DNA of 54,551 bases from NCBI GenBank assembly GCA_030605565.1, contig JAUWIB010000119.1, positions 1 through 54,551 of the forward strand, written 5' to 3'. The notes below the pieces were generated by a model. The model was not told where the DNA came from, ran no database searches, and saw nothing but the letters and a program-made list of their open reading frames with translations. Position numbers and translations under genes: made by a program. Positions 3,372 to 38,132 of this stretch are shown piece after piece; positions within the stretch are counted from its first letter, which is position 1, and each line of letters opens with the position of its first letter. The stretch comes from a bacterium. Lineage in GTDB: Bacteria > Zixibacteria > MSB-5A5 > GN15 > FEB-12.

Positions 3372-3447
3372 TGCTTTACTACCAATTGAGCGCTGCCTAT
3401 ATTTTTTCAAGCGCGTTACAGGATAACCAATCTCAAGGAGTTCAGAT

Positions 3448-4500: not shown

Positions 4501-4539
4501 TGATTGCGGGATGCGTATCGGCAGGATGAAGGAGGTCAG

Positions 4540-6952: not shown

Positions 6953-6961
6953 GGAGGTCGG

Positions 6962-7804
6962 ATGATGCAAGGAAACAATATGTTCAGAATCTCGGCCTTG
7001 TTACTCGGTTTAGCATTCGTGCTGACGACGCTGGGTTGTTCGGACAAGACGCTCAATGGAGCTAATGACACGACATCGGTAAATATGAGTTTCAAGGTGA
7101 CCTCACCGGGCATGATCGATGCCGTAAGTCAGTTTCGAGTGATTGTAACCGCATTGGATATCGATCCACCGATCGACAGCCCACTGACTCTCAATGGGCG
7201 TTATCTCGAAGGTATAGTCGAGGTGCCGGCGGGTCCGGATCGCCTCTTCACCGTCATGGCCAGCGATGTCGAGGGGGTGGTTCTTTACCAGGGAGACACA
7301 ACCGTAACCATTTACGACAACGCGGATGTGGAACTACTGATCAACCTCTATCCGCAGGTATCGTTGATCCGAGTATCGCCGCGCTATCTCGAAGTGGCCG
7401 CTGATACGGTTTTCTCCGTCGATATCAGGGCATTCAATGTGCGCAATCTTTATGGTCTTGCCTGTCATCTGCACTGGCAAGGGACCGTTATCTATCCGGA
7501 TAGTGCTCACCCACTGACGCTGCTGGGTACCGATATTCTGTGGGTTGATCGTATTGATCCCAATCTCCACTACTACGCCATCGGGGTTACTCAGTCCGAC
7601 CGGGTTTCACTGCTGGTGGATTCAAATGGTGACGGCGATTTGGCCCGAGTCTTCTTCAGTAGTTTCTCGCCTGATTTCCCTCCGGAGGCGGCAAGACTGT
7701 CAGTTGAGATAACCGAGCTTACGATGCCAAGTGGTGAGTTGATACCGATCGACAGTGTCTCTGTCGATGGGAGTACCATACTGGTCGGTACACCGGAGTT
7801 GTAG
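6962..7804 (+). CDS. Cohesin-like lipoprotein
   Basis: 280 residues. AGGAGG precedes two ATGs (6962 and 6965). The signal peptide ends in the lipobox LTTLGC with Cys26. The first half is a beta-sandwich-like domain (VNMSFKVTSPGMIDAVSQFR ...). The second half (about 138-270) resembles cohesin domains (TVFSVDIRAFNVRNLYGLAC, then VDSNGDGDLARVFFSSF), which bind dockerins. Two dockerin-bearing secreted proteins are encoded in this window, so a surface docking role is conceivable but unproved. It ends the plus-strand envelope module. Confidence 0.65.
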   Translation: MMQGNNMFRISALLLGLAFVLTTLGCSDKTLNGANDTTSVNMSFKVTSPGMIDAVSQFRVIVTALDIDPPIDSPLTLNGRYLEGIVEVPAGPDRLFTVMASDVEGVVLYQGDTTVTIYDNADVELLINLYPQVSLIRVSPRYLEVAADTVFSVDIRAFNVRNLYGLACHLHWQGTVIYPDSAHPLTLLGTDILWVDRIDPNLHYYAIGVTQSDRVSLLVDSNGDGDLARVFFSSFSPDFPPEAARLSVEITELTMPSGELIPIDSVSVDGSTILVGTPEL

Positions 7805-12253: not shown

Positions 12254-12772
12254 TCAATCCATCAGGATGACAATGTCTTCGGCAATCTCGGCTTTGAACG
12301 GCTGGTCGGCCGGGATTTCACCCTGCCCGCCCTTGATGAAAAGACCGAAAATCAGCAGCCAGGACAGCAGCTTTTTGCCTTTGCCTTCGGCTGAGATTTC
12401 ATCGACTGCCTTGAGCATGATTTTCTTGTCACCCTCAGCCTCGTAATTGCCATCCGACTCCAGTTCCAGAAGTTCCACTACAATCGAACCCGGCTTGCCG
12501 CCGCGCCCTGCCGGCGTGACTGACTTGACTCTGGCCGAACCCGGGGCGCCGGCCTTTACAACCGTAAAGCCGCCGATATCTATCGGGGCATTGAGTCGGA
12601 TCGGTACCAGGTCGCCGGGCGCGACATACTTGGAGGACACATCCTGACTAAATACGATTTCCACCTCATGTCCCTGAGGTAGCTCGATATCAGCCCAGAC
12701 GTTCCCTGTCAACGCCATCAGCAATGCCATGAGAACTGTGGAGCACGAGAGTAGGCACTTAGACTTTCGCAT
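12254..12772 (-). CDS. Exported protein of unknown function, last gene of the T6SS operon
   Basis: 172 residues from ATG 12772, chosen because AAGGAG lies 8-10 bases upstream (a GTG at 12781 is the alternative). The signal peptide is CLLSCSTVLMALLMALTGNVWA. The mature part is beta-rich with VFSQDVSSKYVAPGDLVPIRL and GSARVKSVTPAGRGGKPGSIV. It has a hydrophobic stretch, LLSWLLIFGLFI, near residue 140. I do not recognise the family. It follows the TssM-like gene by 39 bases on the same strand. In canonical T6SS the exported partner of TssM is the lipoprotein TssJ; this protein has no lipobox but could fill that place. That is inference from position only. Confidence 0.6.
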   Translation of the reverse strand: MRKSKCLLSCSTVLMALLMALTGNVWADIELPQGHEVEIVFSQDVSSKYVAPGDLVPIRLNAPIDIGGFTVVKAGAPGSARVKSVTPAGRGGKPGSIVVELLELESDGNYEAEGDKKIMLKAVDEISAEGKGKKLLSWLLIFGLFIKGGQGEIPADQPFKAEIAEDIVILMD

Positions 12773-12811
12773 ATCTGTCACTCCTTGTTTGCGCTTGTTA
12801 AGAGTCCAGGC

Positions 12812-15025
12812 TTACCACTTGGGCAACTTCTTTTTCGGATCCTCCTCAAAGCTGAAACTGATCTGCTGGCCCGTGGCGGTAAGCGTGATGATCTCGGTCA
12901 TTTCGAATATCGCGAAGTCGCTGGTTAATTCAGCCAGCGCCTTGTATGTCTCACCCCAACTCTCATCCTCCCCGCCATGATCCTTTTCATGCAGGGCAAT
13001 ATAGATGTGATCGCCGGCTCTCCAGATGATACTGGCCGGTCGATTCAGACGAATCTGCTGCGGTCGCGGCCACTCGTCCGGCTTGCCCTTGCCAACCACC
13101 TTAATATGGACATGATGTCCCGGCGGACAATTGGAGAGGGTGAAACGATACTCACGGTTTTTGTCGAAATTCTTAGCATCTTTCAGGAACTTGTCGATGC
13201 GAGCGACATCTTCCTGTCGGTCCGGGTCGGAGGCCAGTTGTCTACGATAACTTCGGAGTTTCTTAACGGCGGTTCCCAGCAAGAAGGCGGGGTCGGTTTC
13301 CTCGGAAAGCCTCGCAGAGAACTGATCGAATTCACCTGTAGTTTTCTGATGCACGACCTCGCGCTTCTGTTCCAGCTCTCTGGAGTTGACGATTCCAAGC
13401 ATGGTCGCACCGAGTTGTTTGATCTCAGCCGATGGTTTCGGAGTCATGGTCGGATAGAGCTCGACTTGGCGAACAATCGCATCCCAGGCGTCCTGCGATT
13501 CACGCTGAACAAGGGCAGCCTTGAAAAGATCCCACAATTCGAGAGCTCTGGTGCTTCGGGTTTGCAGCGATGATCCATCCGGCGCCTGTGTGTAATGACG
13601 GACGCCGCTTTCCAGCTTTGCCGTCTCCTCTGTCGTCACCACCGTGTCTCCGGTCGGCGCGACTTTGGGCCATCGGGTGGAGTCACGGACGATGTTAGTC
13701 AATTGTCCGATCGACTTCGCCAACTTCTGGAGATCGACGTCCTCGCTGATGGTATTATAGTAATCATAGACATAACTTGCCTGCACGGCGAAATCCTGGA
13801 ATACCCAATTGGTGAATTTCGAACGCGCGTACGAGTTGTAAGCCGTACGGAGATCGAGGCGTCCTTTTTCCGGAATCTCGTGAACCGTTCCTTTGCCTTC
13901 CCAGAGCCGATCCTCCAATGCCGAAATGCGATTCAGTTTCAGATGGAAACTGTATAGATGCGGCGCCGACCAGACGGCGGCAAAGATGAGACTGAACACG
14001 ACGGCGTATTTCGCCAGTTTTCTGAAAGCGACCAGACGGCGGTTGCGTATGATTGACTTCAGCAACCAGTAGAACGGTTCCCTCACGCCTATCGGTTGCA
14101 TCTTGTCGGGTGGTTTGTAGAGCGACCGGCCGACATCGGTGCCGATCTTGGTCGGCTCGACGCCGGTGTTCGAAGTGAAGAACACCTGAAAGTCCAGGGT
14201 GCGACCGATGACCAGCTTGAGGAAGTCTTTGAGCTTGACCAGGATGTCTCGCACCGAGCCGGCCCAGGCGGAGTTGGAGGCGATCCGGTTCGAGGCGAGG
14301 ATGTTCTCAAGGAACAACTCGTAATCTTCGGCCAGGAGATGCTCCTGATCGCTCCGGACCAACACCGTTTGGCCTTCGCCGGAGAAGCCCGGCAATACAT
14401 CGGCCTTGGTAACTACCAAAGCCACCGGAATCGGTAGTCGCCCGCCAGCCGGGGCCAGCATCTCGAGCATATTGACAAACGAGGCAACATGAGCCTGACA
14501 CTGCAACTCGGCGCCGAGGACCTTGGGATCGAAAAAGAACAGAAGCCCCTGACAGCCATACATGAAATCCCTGACCTTGTCGGCCAGTTCGTGTCGCTCC
14601 TGTATCGAGACAGCCTTGCCGTTGTAATCGTAGGTGATGATCGGGATGTTTTTTGAGCGATCGAGGATGACGTTGAACTGAAGGATCTTCTCACTCGGGG
14701 TGGACGGCGGAAACTGTTTATCCTCGCGCAGGTCCACCATCGTACCGGCACTGTCGGACGTCCCCAGTCCCCACAGCGCTCGGTAGTTGGCCAGAAACTC
14801 TCCGGCTGTGATGTTGTCGGTGACCGAGAGGCCGAGGTTTTTCGATACCTTGCACTCCTCGTTGAGCACTGTGAAGTAAACTGTCTTGCCGCTGTTGCTG
14901 TGGCCGAAGACGCCGATCCGCATCCCCGATGGCCAGTCGAAACCACCGCCGACCACCTGGTCTTTGCCTTTGGGGGCTGCCTTGGCGCCCTTCTTGAACA
15001 GCTTGAATATCTTGCCCAGTTTCAC
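12812..15025 (-). CDS. TssM-like membrane GTPase of the T6SS
   Basis: 737 residues. The N-terminal cytoplasmic domain is a Ras-like (TRAFAC) GTPase: Walker A GHSNSGKT (41-48), DYNG (133-136, G3 position) and TKAD (206-209, G4 position). One membrane helix lies at ~338-357 (KYAVVFSLIFAAVWSAPHLY). Beyond it are a long helical region and a beta-rich C-terminal domain (NCPPGHHVHIKVVGKGKP). This topology of NTPase, membrane helix, helical periplasmic part and beta domain parallels TssM/IcmF, but the sequence is not an obvious IcmF protein and is shorter (TssM is usually ~1100 residues). Its place beside TssL-like and TssK genes supports a membrane-complex role. A GTPase switch controlling assembly is possible. 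Confidence 0.6.
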   Translation of the reverse strand: MKLGKIFKLFKKGAKAAPKGKDQVVGGGFDWPSGMRIGVFGHSNSGKTVYFTVLNEECKVSKNLGLSVTDNITAGEFLANYRALWGLGTSDSAGTMVDLREDKQFPPSTPSEKILQFNVILDRSKNIPIITYDYNGKAVSIQERHELADKVRDFMYGCQGLLFFFDPKVLGAELQCQAHVASFVNMLEMLAPAGGRLPIPVALVVTKADVLPGFSGEGQTVLVRSDQEHLLAEDYELFLENILASNRIASNSAWAGSVRDILVKLKDFLKLVIGRTLDFQVFFTSNTGVEPTKIGTDVGRSLYKPPDKMQPIGVREPFYWLLKSIIRNRRLVAFRKLAKYAVVFSLIFAAVWSAPHLYSFHLKLNRISALEDRLWEGKGTVHEIPEKGRLDLRTAYNSYARSKFTNWVFQDFAVQASYVYDYYNTISEDVDLQKLAKSIGQLTNIVRDSTRWPKVAPTGDTVVTTEETAKLESGVRHYTQAPDGSSLQTRSTRALELWDLFKAALVQRESQDAWDAIVRQVELYPTMTPKPSAEIKQLGATMLGIVNSRELEQKREVVHQKTTGEFDQFSARLSEETDPAFLLGTAVKKLRSYRRQLASDPDRQEDVARIDKFLKDAKNFDKNREYRFTLSNCPPGHHVHIKVVGKGKPDEWPRPQQIRLNRPASIIWRAGDHIYIALHEKDHGGEDESWGETYKALAELTSDFAIFEMTEIITLTATGQQISFSFEEDPKKKLPKW

Positions 15026-15063
15026 AGTCTATCTTTTCTTTCTAATAACGGCATACTCGGTTC

Positions 15064-15999
15064 TCACCCGCCTCCTTGCAGCTCGGTGAGATGGTCATGC
15101 ATCTGCTCCAGACGATCCTGCTTGTACTGGCTCCACTTAATCGGAACGTACAGCGCAAAAAGTAGAAATAACACAATGATAATGCTGTAGAAGGCGTAAG
15201 CTGGACTGCGCTGAGTCAGCGACATGCGAAAGTATCTCGAACTTGAAAAAACGCCCTTGATCTTACCGCCCAAGGTGCTAAGAAAACTCTTCACCCGCGA
15301 CCAGAAACCGCCGGCTTTGATTACGTATTGCCAATCCTTAAGGTACCAGTCGAACAGCGGACTGCGCTGGGCCATTTTGGAGAATCCTTCAATGCGATGC
15401 ATATGGAACTCGAGGGTGGAGCGGTCCTGCATGAGTTCGCTGCCGATTTGGAGGCGACGTCGTGCCAACTCCTGAAACTTCAGCGGGTCACTCAAGGCCG
15501 CAAACGCCTCCGGGTTGAGATCGGTCTTCAGGGGCTTGCCGTAGGTGTTCATATAGCGCGCTATCTCCGACAAAAAGAAAGCGTTGAGCGGGAAGTTGTT
15601 GTTGAGGGCTCCATCTCGAAACAGCAGCGGCACGAGGTGGTTCTCAAAGAACGGCACATCCTGCTTGACGGCGCGAAGCCCCCGGCAGTAAGTGTACGAC
15701 CGGTTGGACTGACCATCGATATCCGCCTCTGCCTCAAAGAACGAAACCAAAACCTGAACCGTCAGTTGCCGCAAGTCGGAACTTGTCAGCGGCGCCTGCT
15801 TTATCTTATCGAGCAGGAATTGATCGAGTTCCACCGCCTGGTCGCGCTGCTGACGCAAAGCCTGAAAGACGGCCCCGATACCATTGTATGTCTGCAAGAA
15901 AGCCTCGGTGGCAAACTGCTGGGGGTCTTGCTCGAAACTCTCCAGATATCTGAAAATATCCTCAACATATGTTTTGACAGCGATACGGTTGTTCATCAT
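15064..15999 (-). CDS. TssL-like T6SS membrane protein
   Basis: About 311 residues. Start uncertain: ATG 15999, ATG 15996 or TTG 16005 all lie within a few bases of GGAG. The long N-terminal part is helical and soluble (VEDIFRYLESFEQDPQQFAT, LTVQVLVSFFEAEADIDG). A single hydrophobic helix (AFYSIIIVLFLLFALYVPI) lies ~30 residues from the C-terminus. A cytoplasmic helical domain with one C-terminal membrane anchor is the design of TssL/DotU, and the gene lies between tssK and the TssM-like gene. Direct similarity to TssL is not evident to me, so this is a call by topology and context. Confidence 0.5.
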   Translation of the reverse strand: MMNNRIAVKTYVEDIFRYLESFEQDPQQFATEAFLQTYNGIGAVFQALRQQRDQAVELDQFLLDKIKQAPLTSSDLRQLTVQVLVSFFEAEADIDGQSNRSYTYCRGLRAVKQDVPFFENHLVPLLFRDGALNNNFPLNAFFLSEIARYMNTYGKPLKTDLNPEAFAALSDPLKFQELARRRLQIGSELMQDRSTLEFHMHRIEGFSKMAQRSPLFDWYLKDWQYVIKAGGFWSRVKSFLSTLGGKIKGVFSSSRYFRMSLTQRSPAYAFYSIIIVLFLLFALYVPIKWSQYKQDRLEQMHDHLTELQGGG

Positions 16000-16006
16000 C
16001 TCCAAC

Positions 16007-17455
16007 TCAGATCGCGTATACGATCAAATCCATTTTTGACAGGTTTGTGAATCTCTGACTATCGTCGGCGCCACGGAAAATAAGTATAATCTGGTTTACC
16101 GACGGCGACTTCAGCATGTCCTGGGGGTGCAGCGCCACTTTGTTGCCGTAAGTTACCACGTCGATCTCCACCGGGTCGGTTTCACCAAGACCGCGAGCCT
16201 CATTCAGCCCCAGTCGCACCTGCATACTGGTCCATCGAGCGGCGTCGAACAGATCCTTGTTCAAGAGGACCACGGTGTCACTCATAGCGCGCGCATCGGG
16301 AACATCGATCAGCAGGTAACACAGTTCACCCATAACTTCCGTTTGACAGCCACCATAGTCAACCACGCGGTAAGTCTGTCCGTGATAAGTAAGGGTGTCG
16401 GAAGCCACCGCCTGATCGCCGAGCTGTTCCTTCTTGACCTGGGCCAGAAAACCGAAGACGCCACGCACCTGGCTCAGAATGTCGTCAATAGCCCGGACGT
16501 GGCCGCCGATATCAATATGATTGTAGTCGGCCAGCAGGAAGGCATCGACCTGCGACATGAAGCGACCCACCTCGGAACTCATCTCCTTGATGAAAAAGCG
16601 TTCGTTGAGCAAGTCCTTCAGCCCCGGTTGGAGGTTCAAAAGAGTCGTGAAGGAACGGAACAGTCCCTTGAAGAACATCACCAGGTGAATCGGATGCCCG
16701 GCGTTCTTACCGACCACGTAGCTGTCAAGCGTCGAGGACAGGTGGTAGGCGAACTGATAGATAGTATCCTTGAAAGCCTGCTGCAGTTCAGTCCGCTCAC
16801 CGGAGAGCGCGCCACCAGCGCAAACAGCCATGTATGCGCGTGACGATAACGACAGGAGATTCTCAAGCCGGTTGCGATAGTCAAGACTCTTGGAGGTCAG
16901 TTGTTCGTCGGCATAGAGTGTGACACAGGGCGGGTAGTAGTGCTCGGCTGGAGTGACGTTGCCGCTGTTGACGGACAGTTCGGCGATTTGGAGGCAGCGT
17001 CCCTCGGGCAGATTCGGCGGGGTGCCCAGGGTCAGCAGATAGTTCCCCGTTAGGTATGGCAGGCGGGGGAGATCTTCGTGGGGCTCCGGGTCGCCAACCT
17101 GTTTGCGAGCGGTTGCGTCGATGCCGATGTACACCGGAACCTTGTCGCCGCTGACTTCACCATCCGCGCGAACGGCGGTCTGGTTGTTTTCGTTGATCTC
17201 AATCGCGCCGCCATCGGGGGTCAAGGCCTGACAACGAACCACTTCCACGCGCAGGCGGTTTCCCGACATCGACAAGTTCAGGCTCAAAGCTGGATGGCCG
17301 GAGAACGACTTGCGAATCAAACCGTAGCGATCACCAACGTTGAGCGCATACCAGCGGGCCAGTTCTTCAAAATAGTTCTCCTGGTCCTGCAGATGGCGCT
17401 GGGTGATCAGCATCCCATCCTGCCAGTTAACTGAATATAAGTTCAAGTCAGTCAT
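16007..17455 (-). CDS. tssK: T6SS baseplate subunit TssK
   Basis: 482 residues, slightly longer than usual TssK. The N-terminal signature VNWQDGMLITQRHLQDQENY matches the W-x-D/E-GM-L...H-Q-Q pattern at the start of TssK proteins. The remainder (GGAIEINENNQTAVRAD, YLTGNYLLTLGTPPNLPEG) fits the shell-like and receptor-like domains. TssK trimers link the TssF/TssG wedge to the membrane complex. The ribosome site AAAGGC precedes ATG 17455. It sits between tssG and the TssL-like gene, the order expected of a baseplate-to-membrane segment. The overlap with the next gene is at most a few bases. Confidence 0.85.
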   Translation of the reverse strand: MTDLNLYSVNWQDGMLITQRHLQDQENYFEELARWYALNVGDRYGLIRKSFSGHPALSLNLSMSGNRLRVEVVRCQALTPDGGAIEINENNQTAVRADGEVSGDKVPVYIGIDATARKQVGDPEPHEDLPRLPYLTGNYLLTLGTPPNLPEGRCLQIAELSVNSGNVTPAEHYYPPCVTLYADEQLTSKSLDYRNRLENLLSLSSRAYMAVCAGGALSGERTELQQAFKDTIYQFAYHLSSTLDSYVVGKNAGHPIHLVMFFKGLFRSFTTLLNLQPGLKDLLNERFFIKEMSSEVGRFMSQVDAFLLADYNHIDIGGHVRAIDDILSQVRGVFGFLAQVKKEQLGDQAVASDTLTYHGQTYRVVDYGGCQTEVMGELCYLLIDVPDARAMSDTVVLLNKDLFDAARWTSMQVRLGLNEARGLGETDPVEIDVVTYGNKVALHPQDMLKSPSVNQIILIFRGADDSQRFTNLSKMDLIVYAI

Positions 17456-17524: not shown

Positions 17525-18475
17525 TCAAACTCCCATTCGTGCCTTGGCGCTGTGGCGGCTTTGCGCAAAGGTAGAGTAGCCGAGAAAGCTCTGACCTCGA
17601 GACGACCCCAGGTTCAGGTCACCCTCGTCCACTTTGATGCGAATCTTGCAGTCCAGGTTCGTCGGCATGCAGATGCTGAGGACCCATTCGATCTTGCGCC
17701 GTTTCGGTTTCCCAGGCAGCAGGTCAGCGACCTCGTCAGGCTTGACGTCGCTGACCGTAAGTGCATAGCTGGAATCATACTCTTGAAAAGAGCGCCCCAT
17801 GACGAGATCATCGCCAAGGCGGCTGTTCCTCCGACCGAGACGACATTGCAGATCAGTCGGGATATCGTACCGGGCTGCGACATTCTCGATGAAGCGAAAG
17901 TCAAACCCCAAAAGGAAGCGCAGCACGTGAGCTACAAACTCGGGGTTGCCGGCCCACAGATGAAACCCCGGCATGATAGCCGCCCACATTAGCGGTTCGC
18001 GTATGTCATCGGGCGGTTCCGGCAGGCTGAAGTTGAACAGTTTCAGATAGCGCAGCAGGTAATCGAGATTGACCAGGGCTAAGGAATACTCCAGTTGCTC
18101 ATGCCTGGCGACGGCGGTGTAACGTATGACCGAGCCGTCGAAAGGCGCCATCAGGTGGCGAGCGTTGTCCTCCCAAACGCGAGCGCCGGCCTGACCGCCG
18201 TGCCAGCCGTAGAAGAACTGGTAGGGCAGCCAGTCGACAGCGCTGGGGAAGCCGACGTCCAGCACGACCGTGGTGCTCTCGTCGACCGGCTTGCCGGCGG
18301 CCGGTTGCTGGCTGAGGATTTCACCCAGGTAATTCCGATGTTCACCAACTGCCCTGATATGAACACGGTGAATATCGATCCCGAGCTTCATCAAAAGCGT
18401 CAGCGCCGTGGCATAACGGAAAGGGTGATGCCGGTTGGTCAACTCCGGCATGATGCGGTGGCCGCTGTTGTTCAT
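17525..18475 (-). CDS. tssG: T6SS baseplate subunit TssG
   Basis: 316 residues. The gene starts inside the stop of tssF (ATGA, 18472-18475), so the two are translationally coupled, as they are in most T6SS loci. Sequence features fit TssG: FFYGWHGGQAGARVWEDN, HVLRFLLGFDFRFIENVAAR, then RLGRRNSRLGDDLVMG leading to a C-terminal beta region with LLPG and a final LGYSTF. Two TssG and one TssF form the baseplate wedge in known systems. A second ATG (MPEL) lies eight codons in. Confidence 0.8.
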   Translation of the reverse strand: MNNSGHRIMPELTNRHHPFRYATALTLLMKLGIDIHRVHIRAVGEHRNYLGEILSQQPAAGKPVDESTTVVLDVGFPSAVDWLPYQFFYGWHGGQAGARVWEDNARHLMAPFDGSVIRYTAVARHEQLEYSLALVNLDYLLRYLKLFNFSLPEPPDDIREPLMWAAIMPGFHLWAGNPEFVAHVLRFLLGFDFRFIENVAARYDIPTDLQCRLGRRNSRLGDDLVMGRSFQEYDSSYALTVSDVKPDEVADLLPGKPKRRKIEWVLSICMPTNLDCKIRIKVDEGDLNLGSSRGQSFLGYSTFAQSRHSAKARMGV

Positions 18476-20136
18476 TTCAACTCTATCTCGACAGCGAATT
18501 GTGTATTAACCGGAGCCCGGGCCTTCAAGAAGTTGGCCAGCCGGATTTTCAGAAGTCCGGTTTCATCTTCACTATGAAAGTCATCCTTGCCCGCGACGAC
18601 GGTCACTACGATACACCGCCGGACGCCCCGTTCGAATCGGTGCACACCGTTGTCGCAGTGAGCATCGGTGATACGAGGATCGAACGAGCGGGCCCAGTTG
18701 GCGATTTCAGCGAAAGTAAGAGCGCGGTCGCGACTCCGCAAACGCGAGGAGGCCTCGGAAACGATTTGTTCTTCGGTCTTGGCCGGTACCGCACCGGCTG
18801 TCGGAATTATGTTGGTGGATGATTCGATACCGGGATGGTTCTCGTACAGTTCGGTTATTTTGTTTGCAGCGATGCCGTTGGCGTCAACCCCGGCTGTAAC
18901 CGTATACGTGACCTTGATAGCATCCGGCGGGTTGTCAACTTCGGTGGTGAAATCAAACCAGAGCGTCAATCTGTCGTCGTGCTCCTCCAACGAGTAGACC
19001 CCCTGGGCCCGATCTGAAAGCACCTGATGAGTGGGGACGTACTCCCGATTGTTGGAGTCAGTGACACTGGTGATCTCAAAGATCGTCGAAATATCATCGG
19101 GAAGTTCCAACTCAACCAGTCGGTTTCCGCCTGTGTGCTTGAACGAGGTCAACTCGGTTTTGTTCACGACGACGAAACAGTCGAAGTAAATGCCCAACGG
19201 TGCAAGCAGTTTCGATCTGTTACCACCCGGTGGGAGGTCGATTCTGATCCAGAACAGGCTCTCCGATGCGGGTGATTCCAATTGGTTCTGCTGGATCAAT
19301 GATGCGAGCGTCTCATCAGCAGGTCCGGAGTCCCAGGTACTGCTGAATTTCTCAGGAAGCACTGCGAAGCTGTCGGCCAGCGGTACGAACAAATCGGAAG
19401 TCGATCGCAGCCCGCCCCAGTCCAATGGTTGGCCGCCGTTCTGAAATATCTGTTCAAGACCAGCGCCCAGTCCGGGACAAAACCCGCTATCTTCGTAGAA
19501 CGACCCAAAGTGACTGCCCGGATACCAATAGGACCAACGTAATTGTCTCAAGGCTTCCGGGTCTCCGTCCATGAACACCACGGCGTCGGTCAAATTGGCA
19601 CTGGGACCCTGGTACTCTACCGCCACAAACAACTGTTGCGCTTCGCTGGCCTCGGCGCCACCCATCGTCGGCGCGCCGCCAACTGGGCTACCTGCGCCAA
19701 GGTCCACCAGTCTGTCGCCGGACCTTAGATAAACATGCTTAATCTCGGCTGCCAGTATTCTCTCGGTACGCAATGGCGAGAAGAACAGTGTCTGCCCGCC
19801 TTCCCGTTTTTCCTTGAAGAAGAACCGGGTGTTAGGGTCTACTTCGACCGCCGGATCAGTCGGCCGACAACGCATCACGGTAAAGGCCGGGACCGGCCAG
19901 CGGCGGCACTCCGGGGCCAGCGATCTGATGAGCGACGTGGTCGCCACATCCCAGGTATGTCCGACTTTGCTGTCGATCGAGGCAAGCTGGCTGGCGTACA
20001 TCTGCATCAGTATCCGCAGAATCGGATCCAGTCGTTCCGATGACTCCGGAATCTCAGAGTTGAATGATCGCAGTTCGCGGTGCATCTGGGCGAAAATGCG
20101 CTCGGCCGATCGAGGTTCGCGTGACTCCATGTTCAT
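18472..20136 (-). CDS. tssF: T6SS baseplate subunit TssF
   Basis: 554 residues, close to the usual 580-620. The N-terminus has the TssF-type helical start with RLDPILRILMQMYASQLASI, followed by SLAPECRRWPVPAFTVMRC, the conserved region after which the wedge domains begin. A later portion has LFWIRIDLPPG and the gp6-like C-terminal helices (TFAEIANWARSFDPRITDAH). It is the core of the baseplate wedge with TssG and TssE. ATG 20136 or 20130. It is separated from tssE by 120 bases holding two REP-like hairpins, an unusually long gap in an otherwise tight operon. Confidence 0.85.
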   Translation of the reverse strand: MNMESREPRSAERIFAQMHRELRSFNSEIPESSERLDPILRILMQMYASQLASIDSKVGHTWDVATTSLIRSLAPECRRWPVPAFTVMRCRPTDPAVEVDPNTRFFFKEKREGGQTLFFSPLRTERILAAEIKHVYLRSGDRLVDLGAGSPVGGAPTMGGAEASEAQQLFVAVEYQGPSANLTDAVVFMDGDPEALRQLRWSYWYPGSHFGSFYEDSGFCPGLGAGLEQIFQNGGQPLDWGGLRSTSDLFVPLADSFAVLPEKFSSTWDSGPADETLASLIQQNQLESPASESLFWIRIDLPPGGNRSKLLAPLGIYFDCFVVVNKTELTSFKHTGGNRLVELELPDDISTIFEITSVTDSNNREYVPTHQVLSDRAQGVYSLEEHDDRLTLWFDFTTEVDNPPDAIKVTYTVTAGVDANGIAANKITELYENHPGIESSTNIIPTAGAVPAKTEEQIVSEASSRLRSRDRALTFAEIANWARSFDPRITDAHCDNGVHRFERGVRRCIVVTVVAGKDDFHSEDETGLLKIRLANFLKARAPVNTQFAVEIELK

Positions 20137-20256: not shown

Positions 20257-20631
20257 TTAGCCGAGGGCATAGCTGGCCTCGAATTTCATTTCTTCTTTGC
20301 CGTCCATGTAGTTGCCGGTGACCTTGACCGTCAGCCCAAGAGTGTGCGGGGACAGATCACTGGCTAATCCGAACGACGCTGTCACGCTGTACAGCCTTTT
20401 CTCGAATTTGTCGATGGCGTTTCTCAAGCTGGCGCGGATGTCGGCCTTATTGGCCGCGTAAAGGTCGGCGTACTCCTTGTCCCATAAATCGCAACCGAAA
20501 TCCGGACTGAAAGGAATGGTGCCGAGGCGGGTGCTCAGGATAAGTCCGACCGTATCTCTGATCGAATCCTGTAATTCAGATCTGGCCAGATAGCCTTCGC
20601 GCAGTACCAGAGGGAGTGACAGGTATTCCAT
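20257..20631 (-). CDS. tssE: T6SS baseplate subunit TssE (gp25-like)
   Basis: About 124 residues from ATG 20631. A TTG at 20643, whose TTGA overlaps the VgrG stop, would add four residues and couple translation. The protein has the gp25/lysozyme-like fold signature: SIRDTVGLILSTRLGTIPFSPDFGCDLWD, in which the run of small and acidic residues around GTIPFSPDFG corresponds to the conserved E/G-R-x-x-x-P-DFG region. It then continues with an amphipathic helix (ASLRNAIDKFEKRLY). TssE joins the wedge to the sheath. Confidence 0.85.
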   Translation of the reverse strand: MEYLSLPLVLREGYLARSELQDSIRDTVGLILSTRLGTIPFSPDFGCDLWDKEYADLYAANKADIRASLRNAIDKFEKRLYSVTASFGLASDLSPHTLGLTVKVTGNYMDGKEEMKFEASYALG

Positions 20632-20639
20632 CGGTTCGG

Positions 20640-22427
20640 TCAATTAATCTTGACAATGCCACCCTTGATCGTGGTCATAGCGTCACCCTGAAGGGTGGCG
20701 GTCGGCGCCTTGACGGTGATGGCTGCGCCGCCCTTCGAGTCGTGGTTGATCCCGCCCTCACTTGAGAAATTCCCACCGGCCTTGATCTTGGTGTCCATCG
20801 AGCTTTCCGCATTGATGGCGCTGCCCGACTTCAGGGTAATGTCACCGGTGGTGGTTTCCAGCGTGATGGTTTTGCCCTTCATGGTGATGTCACCATCAGT
20901 TTCTATAGTGATCTTCGGCCCGTCGGCACTCAGGGTGATGGTGTTGCCGGACGCCTGAGTGATGCAGATGGTCTCGAAGTCGCCCTTATCGTGAAAGTAA
21001 ATCTCGTTGCCGCTCTTGGTGCGGAAAAGTTTCAGGTCATTCTCAGCAGAATCATATCCCGCCGAATGACCAACCGGGGCTTTGTCCACACCGTTGTACA
21101 GGCTGCCAAGGACGACCGGGCGATTGGGGTCGCCGTGCTCAAAAGCGACTAATACCTCATCGTCTATTTCGGGCAGACAGAAGAAGCCCCGATCGTTACC
21201 GCTGTGGGGGGTCAGAACTCTAAGCCAATGATCAGGTTCAGCAACGCTCGGTCCATCGTGCCACATCATCTTGACCTTGACACGACCAAGCCCATCGGGA
21301 TCGTCGGTACTGGTGACGATAGCGCTCTGAATATCCGTGAATGGTTTTTGCGCATACTTTTTCGGTGGATAAGCGGTGTCCAGCGGTGTGCAGGTGAAAG
21401 TATTGTGGTAATCGCCCCTGACATAACGATGACCTACCGACTTGATCCAATGGGGACCGTGGAATTCATCAGGCATACCGGCTATCTTAACGCACCGACC
21501 AATGTTCAAGCGGGGATCACGTGAGCGCCCCGAGCAGTTTACCATCCGACCGACCGAATCCTCGCGCGCCCGTTCAATTGATTTGTCTATGGCCGATTGA
21601 CTGGTCGGCTTGAGTCCGGCAACGAAGCTGCCATTGGGATAGATGTTTTTGGACCCGTCGTGCGACAGTTTCGGTAAGTCCGAAAGGGAGGTCTTCAGCG
21701 CGCCCGACGTCTCACCGTCGTACACTTCTTTCTTAATATAGTCATAGGCCTGAGAGGCGAACTTCTCGGTGCGCGTGCCGAGACCCATTTTGAATTCAAA
21801 GAGCATTTGGCCGAAAGCCAGTTCAATGTCTTTATCGGTAGTCTTGGCCTTACCTGCCGTGAATTTCGATCCATCGTAATAGGCAAATAAACCGCTAAGC
21901 CCAGCCAGACGCATGACAAACTGGAAATCGGTTTCGCGGTACTGTACACAGTAAGGCAGGTTTCCCCCGGTTGCCTCGACCCCTCCGACCGTGATTGCAT
22001 GGCTGTTGAGTACGGCGCTTATTATGTCTTTAGCCGTCTGATCGTGAAACAGCTTGTTGCGCTGCACTCCGTCCATCGTCATGGTCGGACTGTGGGCGGT
22101 GATGGTGATAGCGTTTATCAGGTCGACCGTGTTCTCGTGTCTGACCTCGGTAACTACCCCGATGAACTCCATAGCTGTTATCGGCCGGGCCTCCTCCCAA
22201 ATCTCGTCCGTTTCCATTTTCAACGAAATCGTCTCACCAAGGAAACCGGAGAACTCCTTCGTCCCGGTGAAGGCGCTCATGTCCTCCTCGGCGCCCAGTC
22301 CGTGAAGTTCAAGCCTCAGAACATGGTGCCTGTCGATGTACTGGTCCAGCTTGATACTGGCGAGGGACGACATGAATTCCTGATCGACGGCTTTGTCAGC
22401 AACCTTGATGCGAAAGTCGTAGGCCAT
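20640..22427 (-). CDS. vgrG: VgrG spike protein (TssI)
   Basis: 595 residues with the full gp27-gp5 fusion. Residues ~1-330 are the gp27-like base (YDFRIKVADKAVDQEF, YCVQYRETDFQFVMRLAGLS). An OB-fold follows at ~365-450 (TDDPDGLGRVKVKMMWHDG, RGFFCLPEIDDEVLVAFEHG, PVVLGSLYNG). The last part is a triple-stranded beta-helix with short repeats (TIETDGDITMKGKTITLETT). There is no C-terminal extension, so it is a structural spike rather than an evolved effector; the separate PAAR protein would cap it. The 81-base leader after hcp holds a strong hairpin. Confidence 0.92.
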   Translation of the reverse strand: MAYDFRIKVADKAVDQEFMSSLASIKLDQYIDRHHVLRLELHGLGAEEDMSAFTGTKEFSGFLGETISLKMETDEIWEEARPITAMEFIGVVTEVRHENTVDLINAITITAHSPTMTMDGVQRNKLFHDQTAKDIISAVLNSHAITVGGVEATGGNLPYCVQYRETDFQFVMRLAGLSGLFAYYDGSKFTAGKAKTTDKDIELAFGQMLFEFKMGLGTRTEKFASQAYDYIKKEVYDGETSGALKTSLSDLPKLSHDGSKNIYPNGSFVAGLKPTSQSAIDKSIERAREDSVGRMVNCSGRSRDPRLNIGRCVKIAGMPDEFHGPHWIKSVGHRYVRGDYHNTFTCTPLDTAYPPKKYAQKPFTDIQSAIVTSTDDPDGLGRVKVKMMWHDGPSVAEPDHWLRVLTPHSGNDRGFFCLPEIDDEVLVAFEHGDPNRPVVLGSLYNGVDKAPVGHSAGYDSAENDLKLFRTKSGNEIYFHDKGDFETICITQASGNTITLSADGPKITIETDGDITMKGKTITLETTTGDITLKSGSAINAESSMDTKIKAGGNFSSEGGINHDSKGGAAITVKAPTATLQGDAMTTIKGGIVKIN

Positions 22428-24455: not shown

Positions 24456-24896
24456 CTATTCCGTGAGTAGATCTATGTAATAGCTGGCCGCTTTCAGAAG
24501 TGCTTCCTTCTTTTCCTTATCGCCCAGCGTCTTCTTCAAAGGGTTGTTCTTCTTCAGTTGCTTGTCGAGATCGGCCATCATCTCTTTCTGATAGTAGGTC
24601 TTCTGGAGATAATCGTTCTTCTCAATTAGCTCTTTCGATGAGAAGTCCTTCATCGCCTTGATCTCAAAGTCAGCATTGACCGGTTCCCCCTCGGCCGACT
24701 CCAATTCGGCGGAGAACGACGGTCGGAACTTCTGAAACACTTCTTTGAGGTTGTTACACCGCGTCGGTGTGACATCGGCATCCTCCTCACTGTTCAGTTT
24801 TGCGGCGTAGAGCATCTTGTTGGAGGGGAGAAGCTCGACCGGCACCGAGTCGTCTTTTTTGATCCGTTCCGTTGCCCCAAGAATGAACTTGGCCAT
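24456..24896 (-). CDS. tssB: T6SS sheath protein TssB
   Basis: 146 residues. GGAGG stands 5 bases before ATG 24896. TssB features are VPVELLPSNKMLYAAKLNSE near the N-terminus, the FQKFRPSFSAELESAEGEPV region, and a helical C-terminal tail with DKQLKKNNPLKKTLGDKEKK. It is the small sheath subunit that pairs with TssC. The gene lies immediately downstream of the two clpV halves, the usual neighbourhood of tssB, tssC and tssH. Confidence 0.8.
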   Translation of the reverse strand: MAKFILGATERIKKDDSVPVELLPSNKMLYAAKLNSEEDADVTPTRCNNLKEVFQKFRPSFSAELESAEGEPVNADFEIKAMKDFSSKELIEKNDYLQKTYYQKEMMADLDKQLKKNNPLKKTLGDKEKKEALLKAASYYIDLLTE

Positions 24897-24926: not shown

Positions 24927-26024
24927 CTACGCCTGCTCCGTAACGGTGAAGACGTAGGCATCATCTTTAACATCTATAGTAATGCGATCACCCGGTGACA
25001 CCTCACCGGTGATTATATCCACGGAAAGCTTGTTGACAATTTCCTTCTCGATAATCCGCTGAATTGGCCGCGCGCCCAGTTCAATCGTGTAGCCGTCGGT
25101 GGCCAGCTTCTTCTGCGCCCCCGGCGAGAGTGTAGCCCGGATGTTCTGATCTTCCAGCAGTGCTCCCAGCCCCTTGAACTCCAGGCCCGCGATCTTCTCA
25201 ACCTGCTCCTGTGTGAACGAATGAAATACGATAATATCAGTGAGCCGGTTGAGAAATTCCGGGCGGAACTTCGTGAACAGAAAGGCGCGGATCTCCTCCA
25301 TGTCGAGTTCGTGTCCCTCACGGTCGGCGTCGAGGATCTTGTCGGCGGCGTAGTTGGAGGTGAGCACCACAACGCAATTGGAAAAATCAACCGTGCGGTT
25401 TTGACCGTCGGTAAGGCGGCCGTCATCAAGCAGTTGCAGTAAAACGTTGAAGACGTCGGGGTGGGCTTTCTCCACTTCGTCAAACAAGACGATCGAGAAC
25501 GGTTTGCGCTTCACCGCTTCGGTCAACACGCCGCCCGCCTCGTAGCCGACATATCCGGGCGGGGCCCCGATCATCTTAGCCACCGAGTGCGGTTCCATGA
25601 ACTCCGACATGTCGAGCCGGACCATGGCGTTCTTGTCGTCAAACAGGAATTCCGCAAGAAGTTTGGCCAGATAGGTCTTGCCGGTGCCGGTGGGGCCAAG
25701 AAACAAGAACGACCCGACGGGACGATTGGGCAGTTTCAGCCCGGCCCGCGCCTTACGCACGGCGTTGGCGATTCCCTTGATGGCGTCCTCTTGACCTATG
25801 ATTTTGGCGGCAAGGAATTCCTCCATCCTAACCAGGCGGTCTTTCTCTGCCGTCAGCATCTTGGAAAGCGGGATGCCGGTCCGCCGCGCTACCACCGCGC
25901 CGATATCGGGGTCGTCGATCACCCGCTCGGCCGTCTCAACTGTTTTGGTGATGTTGGCAAGTTGCTTCTGACGTTTTTCGAGGTCAGTCTTGATATCGGC
26001 CAGGCTCATATTGTCGATTTTCAT
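24927..26024 (-). CDS. tssH: ClpV/TssH C-terminal half (D2 ATPase)
   Basis: 365 residues corresponding to the second AAA+ ring of ClpB/ClpV. The rest of the middle-domain coil lies at 1-70 (DLEKRQKQLANITKTVETAE, RRTGIPLSKML). Walker A is GPTGTGKT (110-117), Walker B SIVLFDEVEKAHPD, the pore loop GAPPGYVGYE, and sensor 2 IELGARPIQRIIEK. It has its own ribosome site (AGGAG 7 bases before ATG 26024), and its start overlaps the stop of the upstream half by four bases (ATGA). With the N-terminal half the pair totals ~849 residues, as in one ClpV. Together they should disassemble the contracted sheath. The split is discussed as a finding. Confidence 0.88.
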   Translation of the reverse strand: MKIDNMSLADIKTDLEKRQKQLANITKTVETAERVIDDPDIGAVVARRTGIPLSKMLTAEKDRLVRMEEFLAAKIIGQEDAIKGIANAVRKARAGLKLPNRPVGSFLFLGPTGTGKTYLAKLLAEFLFDDKNAMVRLDMSEFMEPHSVAKMIGAPPGYVGYEAGGVLTEAVKRKPFSIVLFDEVEKAHPDVFNVLLQLLDDGRLTDGQNRTVDFSNCVVVLTSNYAADKILDADREGHELDMEEIRAFLFTKFRPEFLNRLTDIIVFHSFTQEQVEKIAGLEFKGLGALLEDQNIRATLSPGAQKKLATDGYTIELGARPIQRIIEKEIVNKLSVDIITGEVSPGDRITIDVKDDAYVFTVTEQA

Positions 26025-27475
26025 TGCTCTGCTCCTGTTGCCGCTTCGATGCGGTAACCCCAGGAATCGTGCAACCGATCGAGATCGCGCGTGAAGTCGT
26101 CGTAAGCTTCCTTGAGGGACTCAAACTCCTCGCATTTCTCTGGCGCCTTCTGAGATTCGCACGCCTTAATCATCTCGTCCAGCGAGGTTACCTGCTCGGT
26201 CAGTTGGGGGAGCTTCGACTTGGCGAACTCCTCTTTAACACTGAACTCGGACCCGGCCTCGTCGATAAGGTCCAGGGCCACGTCCGGTAAGTTGCGTTCG
26301 CCGAGATATCGCTGGGAGTACTTGACGGAAGCTGTGACCGCCTCTTTAGTATAGGTCAGTTCGTGGTGCTTGGCGTAGCTTTCGACCACACCTGAGACGA
26401 TCCTGACAGCGTCGTCGTACGGCGGCTCCTCAACTTTCACGCGCTCGAAGCGCCGGTCGAGAGCCTTGTCTTTTTCCAGGTACTTGGTGTACTCTTCTTC
26501 GGTGGTGGCGCCGATCAACCGAATCTGCCCTCGGGCCAGCGGAGGTTTGAGAAGATTAGCCGCATCCATACCGCCGCCCCCCTGGCCGCCGCAGATCATG
26601 TGGACTTCATCGATAAACAGCACGATCTTACCGGCCGACTTGACCACTTCCCCGATCAGCGTCTTGAACCGCTCTTCAAACTCTCCTTTGTATTTCGCGC
26701 CGGCCACCATTGCCCCAAGGTCGACTTCCATGACTTTGACGCCCTCGAGCGCTTTGGGCACCTTACCGTCGATAACCGCTTGGGCGAATCCTTCGACGAT
26801 AGCCGATTTGCCGACCCCGGCGCCGCCGGTGAGAGCCGGACTGTTTTTGCGCCGCCGCAGCAGAATCTGAATCATCTGCTGGAGTTCGGTTTCGCGTCCG
26901 ATCATGTTGTCGAACTCGCCGGCCGCAGCGCGGTTGGTCATGTCGGTGCAGTAACGAAGGGTACCGGAGACTTCCTTTGCGGCCGGTTCGCCCGGAGCGC
27001 CATCGGCGCTCGGTGTGGCAGTGGCGATTTCCTGAACCGATTTGGCCTCGGCGATAGCGCGGTAAATATCTTCCTTGGACAGGTCGATCTTGTCGCGCAC
27101 CACCGGGTTCAGCTTTATCTTGGGGTCGAAGGCCGCGATGAAAATGTGTTCCGGCTCGACCAGCGGGTCGTAGAGTTTGGCTTTTTCCTCCAGCGCCTGG
27201 GTCAGGACTTCGTGGACGGCGGGGGAGATGGCCAACTTTTCACGCGGGGTGGAGCGGCGTGAGGTTTCTTTGAGGTGATCTTCCAGCACCGACTCAACGA
27301 AAGCCGGGCTTTTGCCCACCTGGTTCAGAATTGACTCAACCTCTGAGCCTTCGTGACGGATGACAGCGATGAGGAGGTGTTCGACTTCGATTTCGGGATG
27401 CCGGAACTCGGCGGCGACTTCCTTGGCAACCTTAATAACGGTTCTCGAATCCGATGAGTAGTTGGCGATATCCAT
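26021..27475 (-). CDS. tssH: ClpV/TssH N-terminal half (ClpN and D1 ATPase)
   Basis: 484 residues. Residues 1-145 are a Clp N-domain-like double repeat (EIEVEHLLIAVIRHEGSEVE; DPLVEPEHIFIAAFD). Next come an Ala/Gly/Pro-rich linker and the D1 AAA+ domain with Walker A GGAGVGKS (217-224), Walker B KIVLFIDEVHMI and arginine finger region KALDRRFERVKVEEPP. The protein stops in the middle-domain coil (LKEAYDDFTRDLDRLHDSWG). It is the first gene of the core T6SS operon, behind the promoter at 27563-27592. An 80-base leader has only a weak ribosome site. Confidence 0.88.
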   Translation of the reverse strand: MDIANYSSDSRTVIKVAKEVAAEFRHPEIEVEHLLIAVIRHEGSEVESILNQVGKSPAFVESVLEDHLKETSRRSTPREKLAISPAVHEVLTQALEEKAKLYDPLVEPEHIFIAAFDPKIKLNPVVRDKIDLSKEDIYRAIAEAKSVQEIATATPSADGAPGEPAAKEVSGTLRYCTDMTNRAAAGEFDNMIGRETELQQMIQILLRRRKNSPALTGGAGVGKSAIVEGFAQAVIDGKVPKALEGVKVMEVDLGAMVAGAKYKGEFEERFKTLIGEVVKSAGKIVLFIDEVHMICGGQGGGGMDAANLLKPPLARGQIRLIGATTEEEYTKYLEKDKALDRRFERVKVEEPPYDDAVRIVSGVVESYAKHHELTYTKEAVTASVKYSQRYLGERNLPDVALDLIDEAGSEFSVKEEFAKSKLPQLTEQVTSLDEMIKACESQKAPEKCEEFESLKEAYDDFTRDLDRLHDSWGYRIEAATGAEQ

Positions 27476-37037: not shown

Positions 37038-38132
37038 TTACGGTTGTCCCTGTTCTCGCACATTATAAGACACTCTGGTTCTGCCCGGCGGGAGGTTCTC
37101 CACCTTGGCGTAACCGTCGCCGTCGAGGGTGCCTTCTTTTATTTCACCGTTGGCGCAGTGAACGCGATAAGGCCGATTGCCAATGCTGTTGCCTGCCTCA
37201 TCCCGGAGTCTTAGTTCGATCCAGTCCTGAAACTTCAGGAGCTTCGACCGAGCCGAACATCCACCGGCCTTGGCCTCGAAGTAGTAAGCGGGCGAGGAGT
37301 AACCCTGACGCGCAGCCCGTTCATTCTGGACCGGTAGCAGGTCTTCGTTCAACTCAAACGTCCAGTCCGCCTCGATCTTGTCGCCGTCAACTTCGGACTC
37401 GATGACTCTAATCTTGCGGTCCGGCGCATTGAGATCCCTCAAATAAATGGTCAGGGTAGCCGGTGTGCCCGGTTCCATGCCCGAGCAGTCTGCCTTGAGT
37501 TGTACCACGTCGCCGACCGCTGCCTCCTCCGTTGACCATTCCGCTTTGGAAATAACTCTGAGTTCGATGTCGTAGCTGCCCGCCTCGATCCCGGTCTTGC
37601 TTACGCGTCCGGTCAGGACACCCTCGTCTATGGTAGCACCAGACTTGGCGAGACTATAGGCCACACCCATCACCGGGAAACCGCCCTTGTCGACGAAATC
37701 CACATGGAGAAAATGTTCCTCGCCTTCACTCTCCAGTTCGGTTGAAGCCCCGGCCTCGTCGCCTTCCGCACCCTCTTGTTGTGCCCCGTCTGCTCCCGGT
37801 GTTCCGGCTCCTGCGCCACCGCCGCCGCCGGGTCCGATCAACACGGTCGGCTCCCCGGGCGGAGCGATAGTATCCGGTGGACCGACACAGGTGGCCATGT
37901 CGCCCACGCACGCGGCCGGCACACCGCCGATCAAGACGGTCACTGCTCCGGGTGGCAGGATCGGTCCGCCAACATGCGGGATCGGCGTCGGGGCCGGGGT
38001 TTGCATGGGACAAGTGTGCATATCGCCTACTCTCGCAGCCGGTTTGCCGCCGATCAGCACGGTCGGGCATCCCACTACAATGCTGCCTCCGTGCACTGTC
38101 ATGTCGCCCATCCGTGCGGCCGGTTTACCCAT
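37038..38132 (-). CDS. PAAR spike-tip protein with transthyretin-like C-terminus
   Basis: 364 residues. Residues 1-110 are PAAR repeats (GKPAARMGDMTVHGG; PTVLIGGKPAARVGDMHTC; VTVLIGGVPAACVGDMATC) with the Cys/His ligands expected of the zinc-bound cone that caps VgrG. A Gly/Ala-rich acidic linker follows at ~110-150. Residues ~155-364 are two beta domains paralogous to those of the 30177 protein. The last one (GEIKEGTLDGDGYAKVENL) is of transthyretin type, a fold that can hold effectors on spikes. AAAGGA precedes ATG 38132. It is the first gene of the cassette behind the promoter at 38184-38213, so it probably delivers the next-encoded OmpA/metalloprotease. Confidence 0.85.
   Translation of the reverse strand: MGKPAARMGDMTVHGGSIVVGCPTVLIGGKPAARVGDMHTCPMQTPAPTPIPHVGGPILPPGAVTVLIGGVPAACVGDMATCVGPPDTIAPPGEPTVLIGPGGGGGAGAGTPGADGAQQEGAEGDEAGASTELESEGEEHFLHVDFVDKGGFPVMGVAYSLAKSGATIDEGVLTGRVSKTGIEAGSYDIELRVISKAEWSTEEAAVGDVVQLKADCSGMEPGTPATLTIYLRDLNAPDRKIRVIESEVDGDKIEADWTFELNEDLLPVQNERAARQGYSSPAYYFEAKAGGCSARSKLLKFQDWIELRLRDEAGNSIGNRPYRVHCANGEIKEGTLDGDGYAKVENLPPGRTRVSYNVREQGQP

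What the first reader, a model, noticed from the sequence alone, without database searches (positions are those of the whole stretch)
12812..15999. Ras-like GTPase fused to a periplasmic arm in place of TssM, with a TssL-topology partner
The 737-residue protein has G1 (GHSNSGKT), DxxG-type (DYNG) and TKAD motifs, one membrane helix and a large outer part with a beta-rich C-terminus. Its neighbour has a cytoplasmic helical domain and a single C-terminal membrane helix, as in TssL. The architecture is TssM/TssL-like but the sequences are not plainly IcmF/DotU. A GTP switch gating assembly would be new.
Basis: partly seen in the sequence, partly recalled or inferred. Interest (0 to 1): 0.7.

Follow-up and report, generated by a model that had tools for sequence, protein, structure and literature searches.

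The report
G-protein anchor of a secretion machine
In one little-studied bacterial phylum, a spear-like protein-injection machine (type VI secretion) lacks the usual membrane anchor proteins and instead carries a membrane-crossing GTP-switch protein with a small helical partner, which may be a new way to hold and control such a machine.

Summary
The 737-aa protein (12812-15025, minus) has an intact Ras-like GTPase domain, one membrane helix, a helical arm and a beta-rich C-terminus; its 313-aa neighbour is helical with one C-terminal membrane helix. Both follow tssK in a T6SS cluster. In 132 genomes of the phylum the GTPase occurs in 65, window-type TssK in 64, both in 63; IcmF/TssM over Pfam's cut-off occurs in 12, only one of which has the GTPase. 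Sheath, tube and baseplate resemble Bacteroidota T6SSiii, not the classical T6SSi also found in the phylum. The GTPase is of the DO-GTPase2 family (over cut-off in 23 genomes, always on this protein). A similar GTPase-membrane-arm protein with the same linker motif lies outside any annotated T6SS on a Haliovirga plasmid. Kinship to TssM is not established: profile ranking against Der and Obg depends on the set used, and arm and partner show none detectable. Best reading: a T6SSiii-like machine with a third kind of membrane complex built on a recruited membrane G protein. It works like TssM/TssL but is not shown to belong to them. GTP binding, TssK contact and function are untested.

The parts
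12812..15025 (-). Membrane-anchored GTPase (called GTPase_M here), 737 aa: conserved basic amphipathic N-terminus (1-27), Ras-like GTPase domain (about 28-305), PP-x-P-x-GV-x-P-x-W linker (306-330), membrane helix (about 338-357), helical arm (361-622), beta-rich C-terminal domain (623-737)
15064..16005 (-). TssL-topology partner (called L-like here), 313 aa from TTG (ATG alternative at 15999): cytoplasmic helical domain, one C-terminal membrane helix (271-289)
12254..12781 (-). Small exported protein (175 aa, signal peptide judged by eye) conserved directly downstream of the GTPase gene; candidate periplasmic third part
   Evidence: no Pfam family over cut-off
16007..17455 (-). TssK (baseplate adaptor), the likely docking partner
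   Evidence: PF05936 over cut-off, TIGR03353 below its cut-off; 64 of 132 genomes
17525..18475 (-). TssG
   Evidence: PF06996 over cut-off
18472..20136 (-). TssF
   Evidence: Position and blastp match to TssF of the Hymenobacter T6SSiii locus; no Pfam family at E 0.1
20257..20643 (-). TssE (gp25-like)
   Evidence: PF04965
20640..22427 (-). VgrG
   Evidence: PF04717 and PF05954
22509..22919 (-). Hcp/TssD tube protein
   Evidence: PF17642
23013..24431 (-). TssC sheath
   Evidence: PF17541; best plasmid matches are Bacteroidota
24456..24896 (-). TssB sheath
   Evidence: PF05591
24927..26024 (-). ClpV/TssH second half (AAA D2 and ClpB_D2-small)
26021..27475 (-). ClpV/TssH first half (Clp_N, AAA D1, lid)
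37038..38132 (-). PAAR-repeat tip protein
   Evidence: PF05488

Best explanation
The two genes encode the inner-membrane part of a type VI secretion machine whose tail and baseplate are related to Bacteroidota T6SSiii. The 737-aa protein is a membrane-anchored G protein of the DO-GTPase2 family: its GTPase faces the cytoplasm next to the baseplate, one helix crosses the inner membrane, and a helical arm with a beta-rich tip reaches into the periplasm. The 313-aa partner holds a helical domain in the cytoplasm through one C-terminal membrane helix. Together, probably with the 175-aa exported protein, they do the job of TssL and TssM (or of TssN and its partners in T6SSiii): they anchor TssK and so the baseplate. 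GTP binding would change the GTPase face, and perhaps the hold of the amphipathic N-terminus on the membrane as in Arf proteins (recalled comparison), to license docking of the baseplate or to relay a signal to or from the arm. SHOWN: intact G motifs, predicted fold, predicted membrane topology, family, position, co-occurrence, absence of detectable TssJ/L/M/A in the genome. INFERRED: that they form a complex, that they bind TssK, that GTP is bound and hydrolysed, and that the switch controls assembly.
For: Co-occurrence in 132 genomes: GTPase 65, L-like 63, TssK 64; GTPase with TssK 63, GTPase with L-like 62, GTPase with IcmF_N over cut-off 1. The L-like gene lies directly upstream on the same strand in 29 of 30 loci. 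Own genome, 96.29% complete: no IcmF_N or DotU over cut-off, no SciN or ImpA_N at E 1. DO-GTPase2 over cut-off in 23 of 132 genomes, each time on this protein. GTPase fold: VIA Z 16.0, rmsd 3.1, 178 aligned to LokiRagO; Z 15.6, rmsd 2.7, 165 aligned to Arl6. G1, G3 and G4 kept in 30 of 30. Tail parts match T6SSiii loci: TssB, C, D, E, F, K, VgrG and both ClpV halves. In three genomes (G078, G114, G115) the GTPase gene lies away from the cluster but is still present; in G114 and G115 it is near a PAAR gene.
Against: No biochemical data. Co-folding with TssK was not possible. The L-like model has no confident structural match (best Foldseek E 0.16; VIA Z 8.4 to a proteasome chain). No Gln follows DxxG, so hydrolysis may be slow or need a partner (reading). 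The amphipathic N-terminus is only moderately supported: reached by 5% of shuffles or fewer in 22 of 30 homologues, and the segment tested was the best of 11, which flatters it. The GTPase gene lies away from the T6SS cluster in G078, G114 and G115. Related DO-GTPases occur outside T6SSs.
Confidence: 0.6

Rival explanations
1. GTPase_M is a very diverged true IcmF/TssM and L-like a very diverged DotU/TssL: same descent, sequence worn away, two N-terminal membrane helices lost.
For: 31 of 42 sub-threshold IcmF_N rows in the phylum fall on this protein, mostly ending near profile position 82, at the TKxD-xx-GF stretch, up to 17.4 bits against a cut-off of 25. hhalign aligns G4 to G5 including the insert between them (prob. 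72%), and with the near homologues alone TssM (67%) ranks above Der (43%) and Obg (4%). The canonical TssM model gives one homologue, L006, 7.0 bits, E 0.0017 in a set of 30, partly in the arm. Same order tssK-L-M and TssL-like topology.
Against: With all 30 sequences Obg (89%) and Der (81%) rank above TssM (72%), and with the diverged 8 likewise (95%, 95%, 79%). Models of the family score canonical TssM at 4.7 bits or less and the Haliovirga non-T6SS protein at 34.8 to 42.1 bits. The linker motif PP..x.P.GV..P..W: 24 of 30 strictly and the other 6 loosely, Haliovirga protein yes, canonical TssM 0 of 9. Arm and partner against canonical ones stay near reversed controls. The tail is T6SSiii-like, while IcmF in this phylum sits with a T6SSi tail where checked.
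Confidence: 0.15
2. The pair is a regulatory or defence module of the DO-GTPase conflict type that travels with the T6SS and is not part of its envelope complex.
For: DO-GTPases are described as switches of predicted conflict systems (passages of PMC7159879). The family occurs outside T6SSs. In G078, G114 and G115 the gene is away from the cluster.
Against: Near-strict co-occurrence with TssK (both 63; GTPase without TssK 2, TssK without GTPase 1). No other membrane complex was found in the window or, for TssJ/L/M, in the genome. Gene order K-L-GTPase is kept across large sequence distance.
Confidence: 0.2
3. The GTPase domain is a structural relic that no longer switches, as in TssM homologues without nucleotide motifs.
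For: No Gln after DxxG. Some TssM homologues lack the nucleotide motifs (passage of PMC9972734).
Against: G1, G3 and G4 kept in 30 of 30. The GTPase part is far more conserved than the arm: 80 of 278 against 11 of 262 invariant columns.
Confidence: 0.1

Closest known systems
T6SSiii of Bacteroidota with the TssNQOPR membrane complex (PMC10781749, abstract and passages seen)
   Same: Tail, tube and baseplate proteins related; lacks detectable TssJLM; membrane part encoded next to tssK and tssG
   Different: TssN has five membrane helices and TssQ, O, P one N-terminal helix each (paper passages); here one GTPase with a single mid-protein helix and one C-terminally anchored partner; the family models match no ORF of two T6SSiii loci at E 0.1; ClpV split in two genes
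TssM (IcmF) of T6SSi
   Same: Cytoplasmic nucleotide-binding domain, membrane passage, large periplasmic arm, insert between G4 and G5
   Different: One membrane helix instead of three (three: passage); arm about 380 instead of about 700 residues; GTPase of the DO-GTPase2 family; no detectable arm homology
TssL (DotU)
   Same: Cytoplasmic helical domain with a single C-terminal membrane helix; gene next to tssK
   Different: No profile similarity above reversed controls; larger cytoplasmic domain
DO-GTPase2 (PF19993) of predicted conflict systems (PMC7159879, passages seen)
   Same: GTPase domain family; some have membrane segments according to the paper
   Different: Described there with GAP1 proteins and variable effectors; none of the passages found ties them to a T6SS
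Haliovirga abyssi plasmid protein (P0001, 707 aa)
   Same: GTPase domain, same PP-x-P-x-W linker, one hydrophobic segment, long outer part
   Different: Beside a second membrane protein among metabolic genes; no T6SS gene annotated within 12 kb

Membership tests
TssM / IcmF | Match to IcmF profiles over cut-off | tested here: not met
   Own genome PF14331 best 11.7 bits, cut-off 25; no IcmF family in Pfam scans of the window protein, L067, L075, L074
TssM / IcmF | GTPase domain closer to that of TssM than to other GTPases | tested here: inconclusive
   hhalign, all 30: TssM 72%, Der 81%, Obg 89%; near 22: 67%, 43%, 4%; diverged 8: 79%, 95%, 95%
TssM / IcmF | Three membrane helices, two before the GTPase | tested here: not met
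   One segment, after the GTPase, in 27 of 30, none in 3
TssM / IcmF | Periplasmic arm homologous to the IcmF arm | tested here: inconclusive
   Profile comparison weak (prob. 0.6 to 2.9%); the arm was not folded or searched alone
TssL / DotU | Match to DotU profile | tested here: not met
   (best 13.3 bits, elsewhere in the genome; cut-off 27)
TssL / DotU | DotU fold | tested here: inconclusive
   No confident structural match of the L-like model
TssL / DotU | Single C-terminal membrane helix with cytoplasmic domain | tested here: met
   One C-terminal segment in 25 of 25; the side of the domain is inferred
DO-GTPase2 (PF19993) | Profile match over cut-off | tested here: met
   23 of 132 genomes over 27 bits, all on this protein; the window member itself 22.8 bits, below the cut-off
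DO-GTPase conflict system | GTPase paired with a GAP1 protein | tested here: not met
   No GAP1 family among the window proteins scanned
T6SSiii | Bacteroidota-type TssC (PF17541) and TssD (PF17642) | tested here: met
T6SSiii | TssNQOPR membrane complex | tested here: inconclusive
   27 window ORFs gave no blastp match to the TssN and TssO genes of L181/L182; the rest of the genome was not searched for them
T6SSi | TssJ, TssL, TssM, TssA present | tested here: not met
T6SS membrane complex (any) | Contact with TssK | not testable with these tools
   No co-folding offered

The most novel reading that the evidence does not exclude
A third, independently assembled membrane complex for T6SSs: a T6SSiii-like machine recruited a membrane-anchored G protein from the DO-GTPase world as its envelope anchor, so that a true GTP switch, with an Arf-like amphipathic N-terminus, couples an outer sensing arm to baseplate docking and firing.
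Probability: 0.4. Interest if true: 0.82.

Novelty: new variant of a known kind. Interest (0 to 1): 0.62.

Why it matters
Two unrelated T6SS membrane complexes are described in the papers read here (TssJLM and TssNQOPR). A third, built on a regulatory G protein, would show that the contractile tail has been fitted with different envelope anchors more than once. It would also make a long-open question testable: whether a nucleotide switch decides when a T6SS docks or fires. And it gives DO-GTPases, so far known as predicted conflict-system switches, a concrete machine to work on.

Tried and rejected
Rejected: filing the pair as IcmF/DotU. The full-length hhalign of the family against canonical TssM gave prob. 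30% on the P-loop region only; domain-only comparison with Der and Obg as controls showed that the signal is not specific on the full set, though the near-only set ranks TssM first. PDB profile searches with both families gave nothing useful. The VIA listing for GTPase_M covers residues 33-332 only, so arm and beta domain were not tested by fold; in the L-like listing no DotU structure appeared, which proves nothing. The canonical TssM profile matched PDB chains only from position 450 onward, so no solved GTPase domain of TssM was on hand for comparison. A VirB10-like look of the 175-aa protein was suspected by eye and found no support in Pfam or NCBIfam. Plasmid and viral searches with the window GTPase or its alignment gave no relative; L-like in plasmids none; the diverged GTPase L067 found three plasmid relatives. 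The scan of genome contigs found only three near MAG contigs. Paper searches; none listed a T6SS with a DO-GTPase; most subscription papers and all bioRxiv preprints are not held. The phylum is not named by the tools; Zixibacteria was only a guess from recall and is not used.
Full report
WHAT IS THERE. On the minus strand, from 27475 down to 12254, lies a T6SS cluster: ClpV in two genes, TssB, TssC, Hcp/TssD, VgrG, TssE, TssF, TssG, TssK, then the two genes of the finding, then a small exported protein.

THE GTPASE PROTEIN. At E 0.1 Pfam finds one family, DO-GTPase2, at residues 36-216 with 22.8 bits, below the cut-off of 27. Across the phylum DO-GTPase2 passes its cut-off in 23 of 132 genomes, and all 23 places coincide with homologues of this protein. 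G1, G3 and G4 motifs were found in 30 of 30 selected homologues, which go down to about 30% identity. The AlphaFold2 model (mean pLDDT 75.8, pTM 0.43) gives a Ras-like domain, a long helix over the membrane segment, a helical arm and a beta-rich end. Its GTPase part aligns best with LokiRagO (Z 16.0, rmsd 3.1, 178 aligned) and Arl6 (Z 15.6, rmsd 2.7, 165 aligned). Conservation falls from GTPase (80 of 278 columns invariant) to arm (11 of 262) and beta domain (9 of 115). The N-terminus is basic and amphipathic; the best of 11 eighteen-residue windows has a moment reached by 5% of shuffles or fewer in 22 of 30 homologues, more often in the other 8; choosing the best window flatters this number.

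THE PARTNER. 313 aa, helical (mean pLDDT 79.7, pTM 0.70), one C-terminal membrane segment in 25 of 25. Near and diverged members are one family (hhalign 99.9%). It has no family in Pfam at E 0.1 or NCBIfam at E 1 and no convincing fold match.

CO-OCCURRENCE. In the 132 genomes of the phylum the GTPase is found in 65, the partner in 63, window-type TssK in 64; GTPase and TssK together in 63, GTPase without TssK in 2 (G002, G017), TssK without GTPase in 1 (G118). IcmF_N over cut-off is in 12, DotU in 12, together in 11; GTPase and IcmF_N meet in one genome, G083 (Fisher p 0.004, relatedness not corrected). 56 of 132 have neither. In 29 of 30 loci the partner gene lies directly upstream of the GTPase on the same strand; L009 (genome G078) is the exception. 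In diverged loci L074 and L084, where tblastn missed it, an ORF of the right size fills the slot. In G078, G114 and G115 the GTPase gene lies far from the partner and cluster, in the last two near a PAAR gene. L-like was not found in 3 genomes with the GTPase, G005, G016, G069; in G005 an ORF fills the slot (L084).

NOT THE CLASSICAL COMPLEX. The own genome (96.29% complete) has no IcmF_N or DotU over cut-off and no SciN or ImpA_N at E 1, while the E. coli control rings each time. Against my reading: 31 of 42 sub-threshold IcmF_N rows in the phylum fall on this GTPase, mostly at the TKxD stretch, up to 17.4 bits against 25; hhalign aligns G4 to G5 with canonical TssM; and with the 22 near homologues alone TssM (67%) ranks above Der (43%) and Obg (4%). 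With all 30 sequences the order turns (TssM 72%, Der 81%, Obg 89%), and with the 8 diverged ones likewise (79%, 95%, 95%). So the test shows a P-loop GTPase and does not decide for or against IcmF descent. Arm against arm and partner against DotU stay near reversed controls.

WHICH MACHINE. Hcp matches the TssD family PF17642, TssC matches PF17541. TssC finds Bacteroidota plasmids as its best full-length matches (9 of 19 records covered to 80% or more). Nine window proteins match two Bacteroidota T6SSiii loci, and none of the T6SS proteins matches the IcmF loci of its own phylum at E 0.001. Those loci are classical T6SSi where checked: L103 with VipB, VasE, SciN, ImpA and FHA, L110 with VipB and VasE. 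So the phylum has two T6SS kinds, and the GTPase goes with the T6SSiii-like one. The described T6SSiii complex is TssNQOPR (PMC10781749, abstract and passages); models of our two families match no ORF of the two T6SSiii loci at E 0.1.

WHERE THE GTPASE COMES FROM. A diverged member finds three plasmid relatives. Two cyanobacterial ones are DO-GTPase2 over cut-off among unknown or defence-like genes. The third, in Haliovirga abyssi (Fusobacteriota), is a 707-aa protein with the same GTPase (34.8 to 42.1 bits with our models; below the DO-GTPase2 cut-off, 13.2 bits), the same linker motif, one hydrophobic segment and a long outer part, beside another membrane protein among metabolic genes, with no T6SS gene annotated within 12 kb. 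The simplest account is that a membrane-anchored DO-GTPase existed outside T6SSs and was recruited; the direction is inferred, not shown.

HOW IT MAY WORK. By position and topology the pair puts two cytoplasmic domains beside TssK and one arm into the periplasm. In T6SSi TssK contacts TssL and TssM, in T6SSiii TssN (passages). Agrobacterium TssM changes shape on ATP binding, and this matters for Hcp recruitment (passages of PMC3953482). I therefore propose a GTP-dependent anchor: nucleotide state sets docking of the baseplate or relays arm contact inward. None of this was measured.

NOVELTY. Ten paper searches listed no T6SS with a DO-GTPase; the paper on the family has no 'IcmF' or 'DotU', and its one 'type VI' is in the reference list.

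Noticed in passing
window 24927-27475: ClpV/TssH is split into two overlapping genes (D1 half with Clp_N, D2 half). The same split is seen in L078, L081, L083 and L085, while T6SSiii loci L181 and L182 have one full-length gene.
   Followed up: partly
window 28644-30149 and 32893-37017: Two large ORFs in the VgrG/PAAR island carry HExxH-like motifs (HEVGH, HELGH; read by eye), the second also an OmpA-like stretch (sub-threshold): candidate metallopeptidase cargo.
   Followed up: no
window 1863-7804: A Ser/Thr kinase with PEGA domain, two CsgG-like genes and two unknown genes; relatives of these recur beside the T6SS in L079 and (without the kinase in the stretch held) L082: possible regulatory neighbours of the machine.
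   Followed up: no
L069, L071 (genomes G114, G115) and L076 (G078): The GTPase gene lies away from the T6SS cluster: with a PAAR gene nearby in G114 and G115, with the 175-aa partner gene in G078.
   Followed up: partly
L178 11944-15370 (Haliovirga abyssi plasmid): A two-gene module of a membrane-anchored GTPase and a second membrane protein whose C-terminal region looks similar by eye, outside a T6SS.
   Followed up: partly
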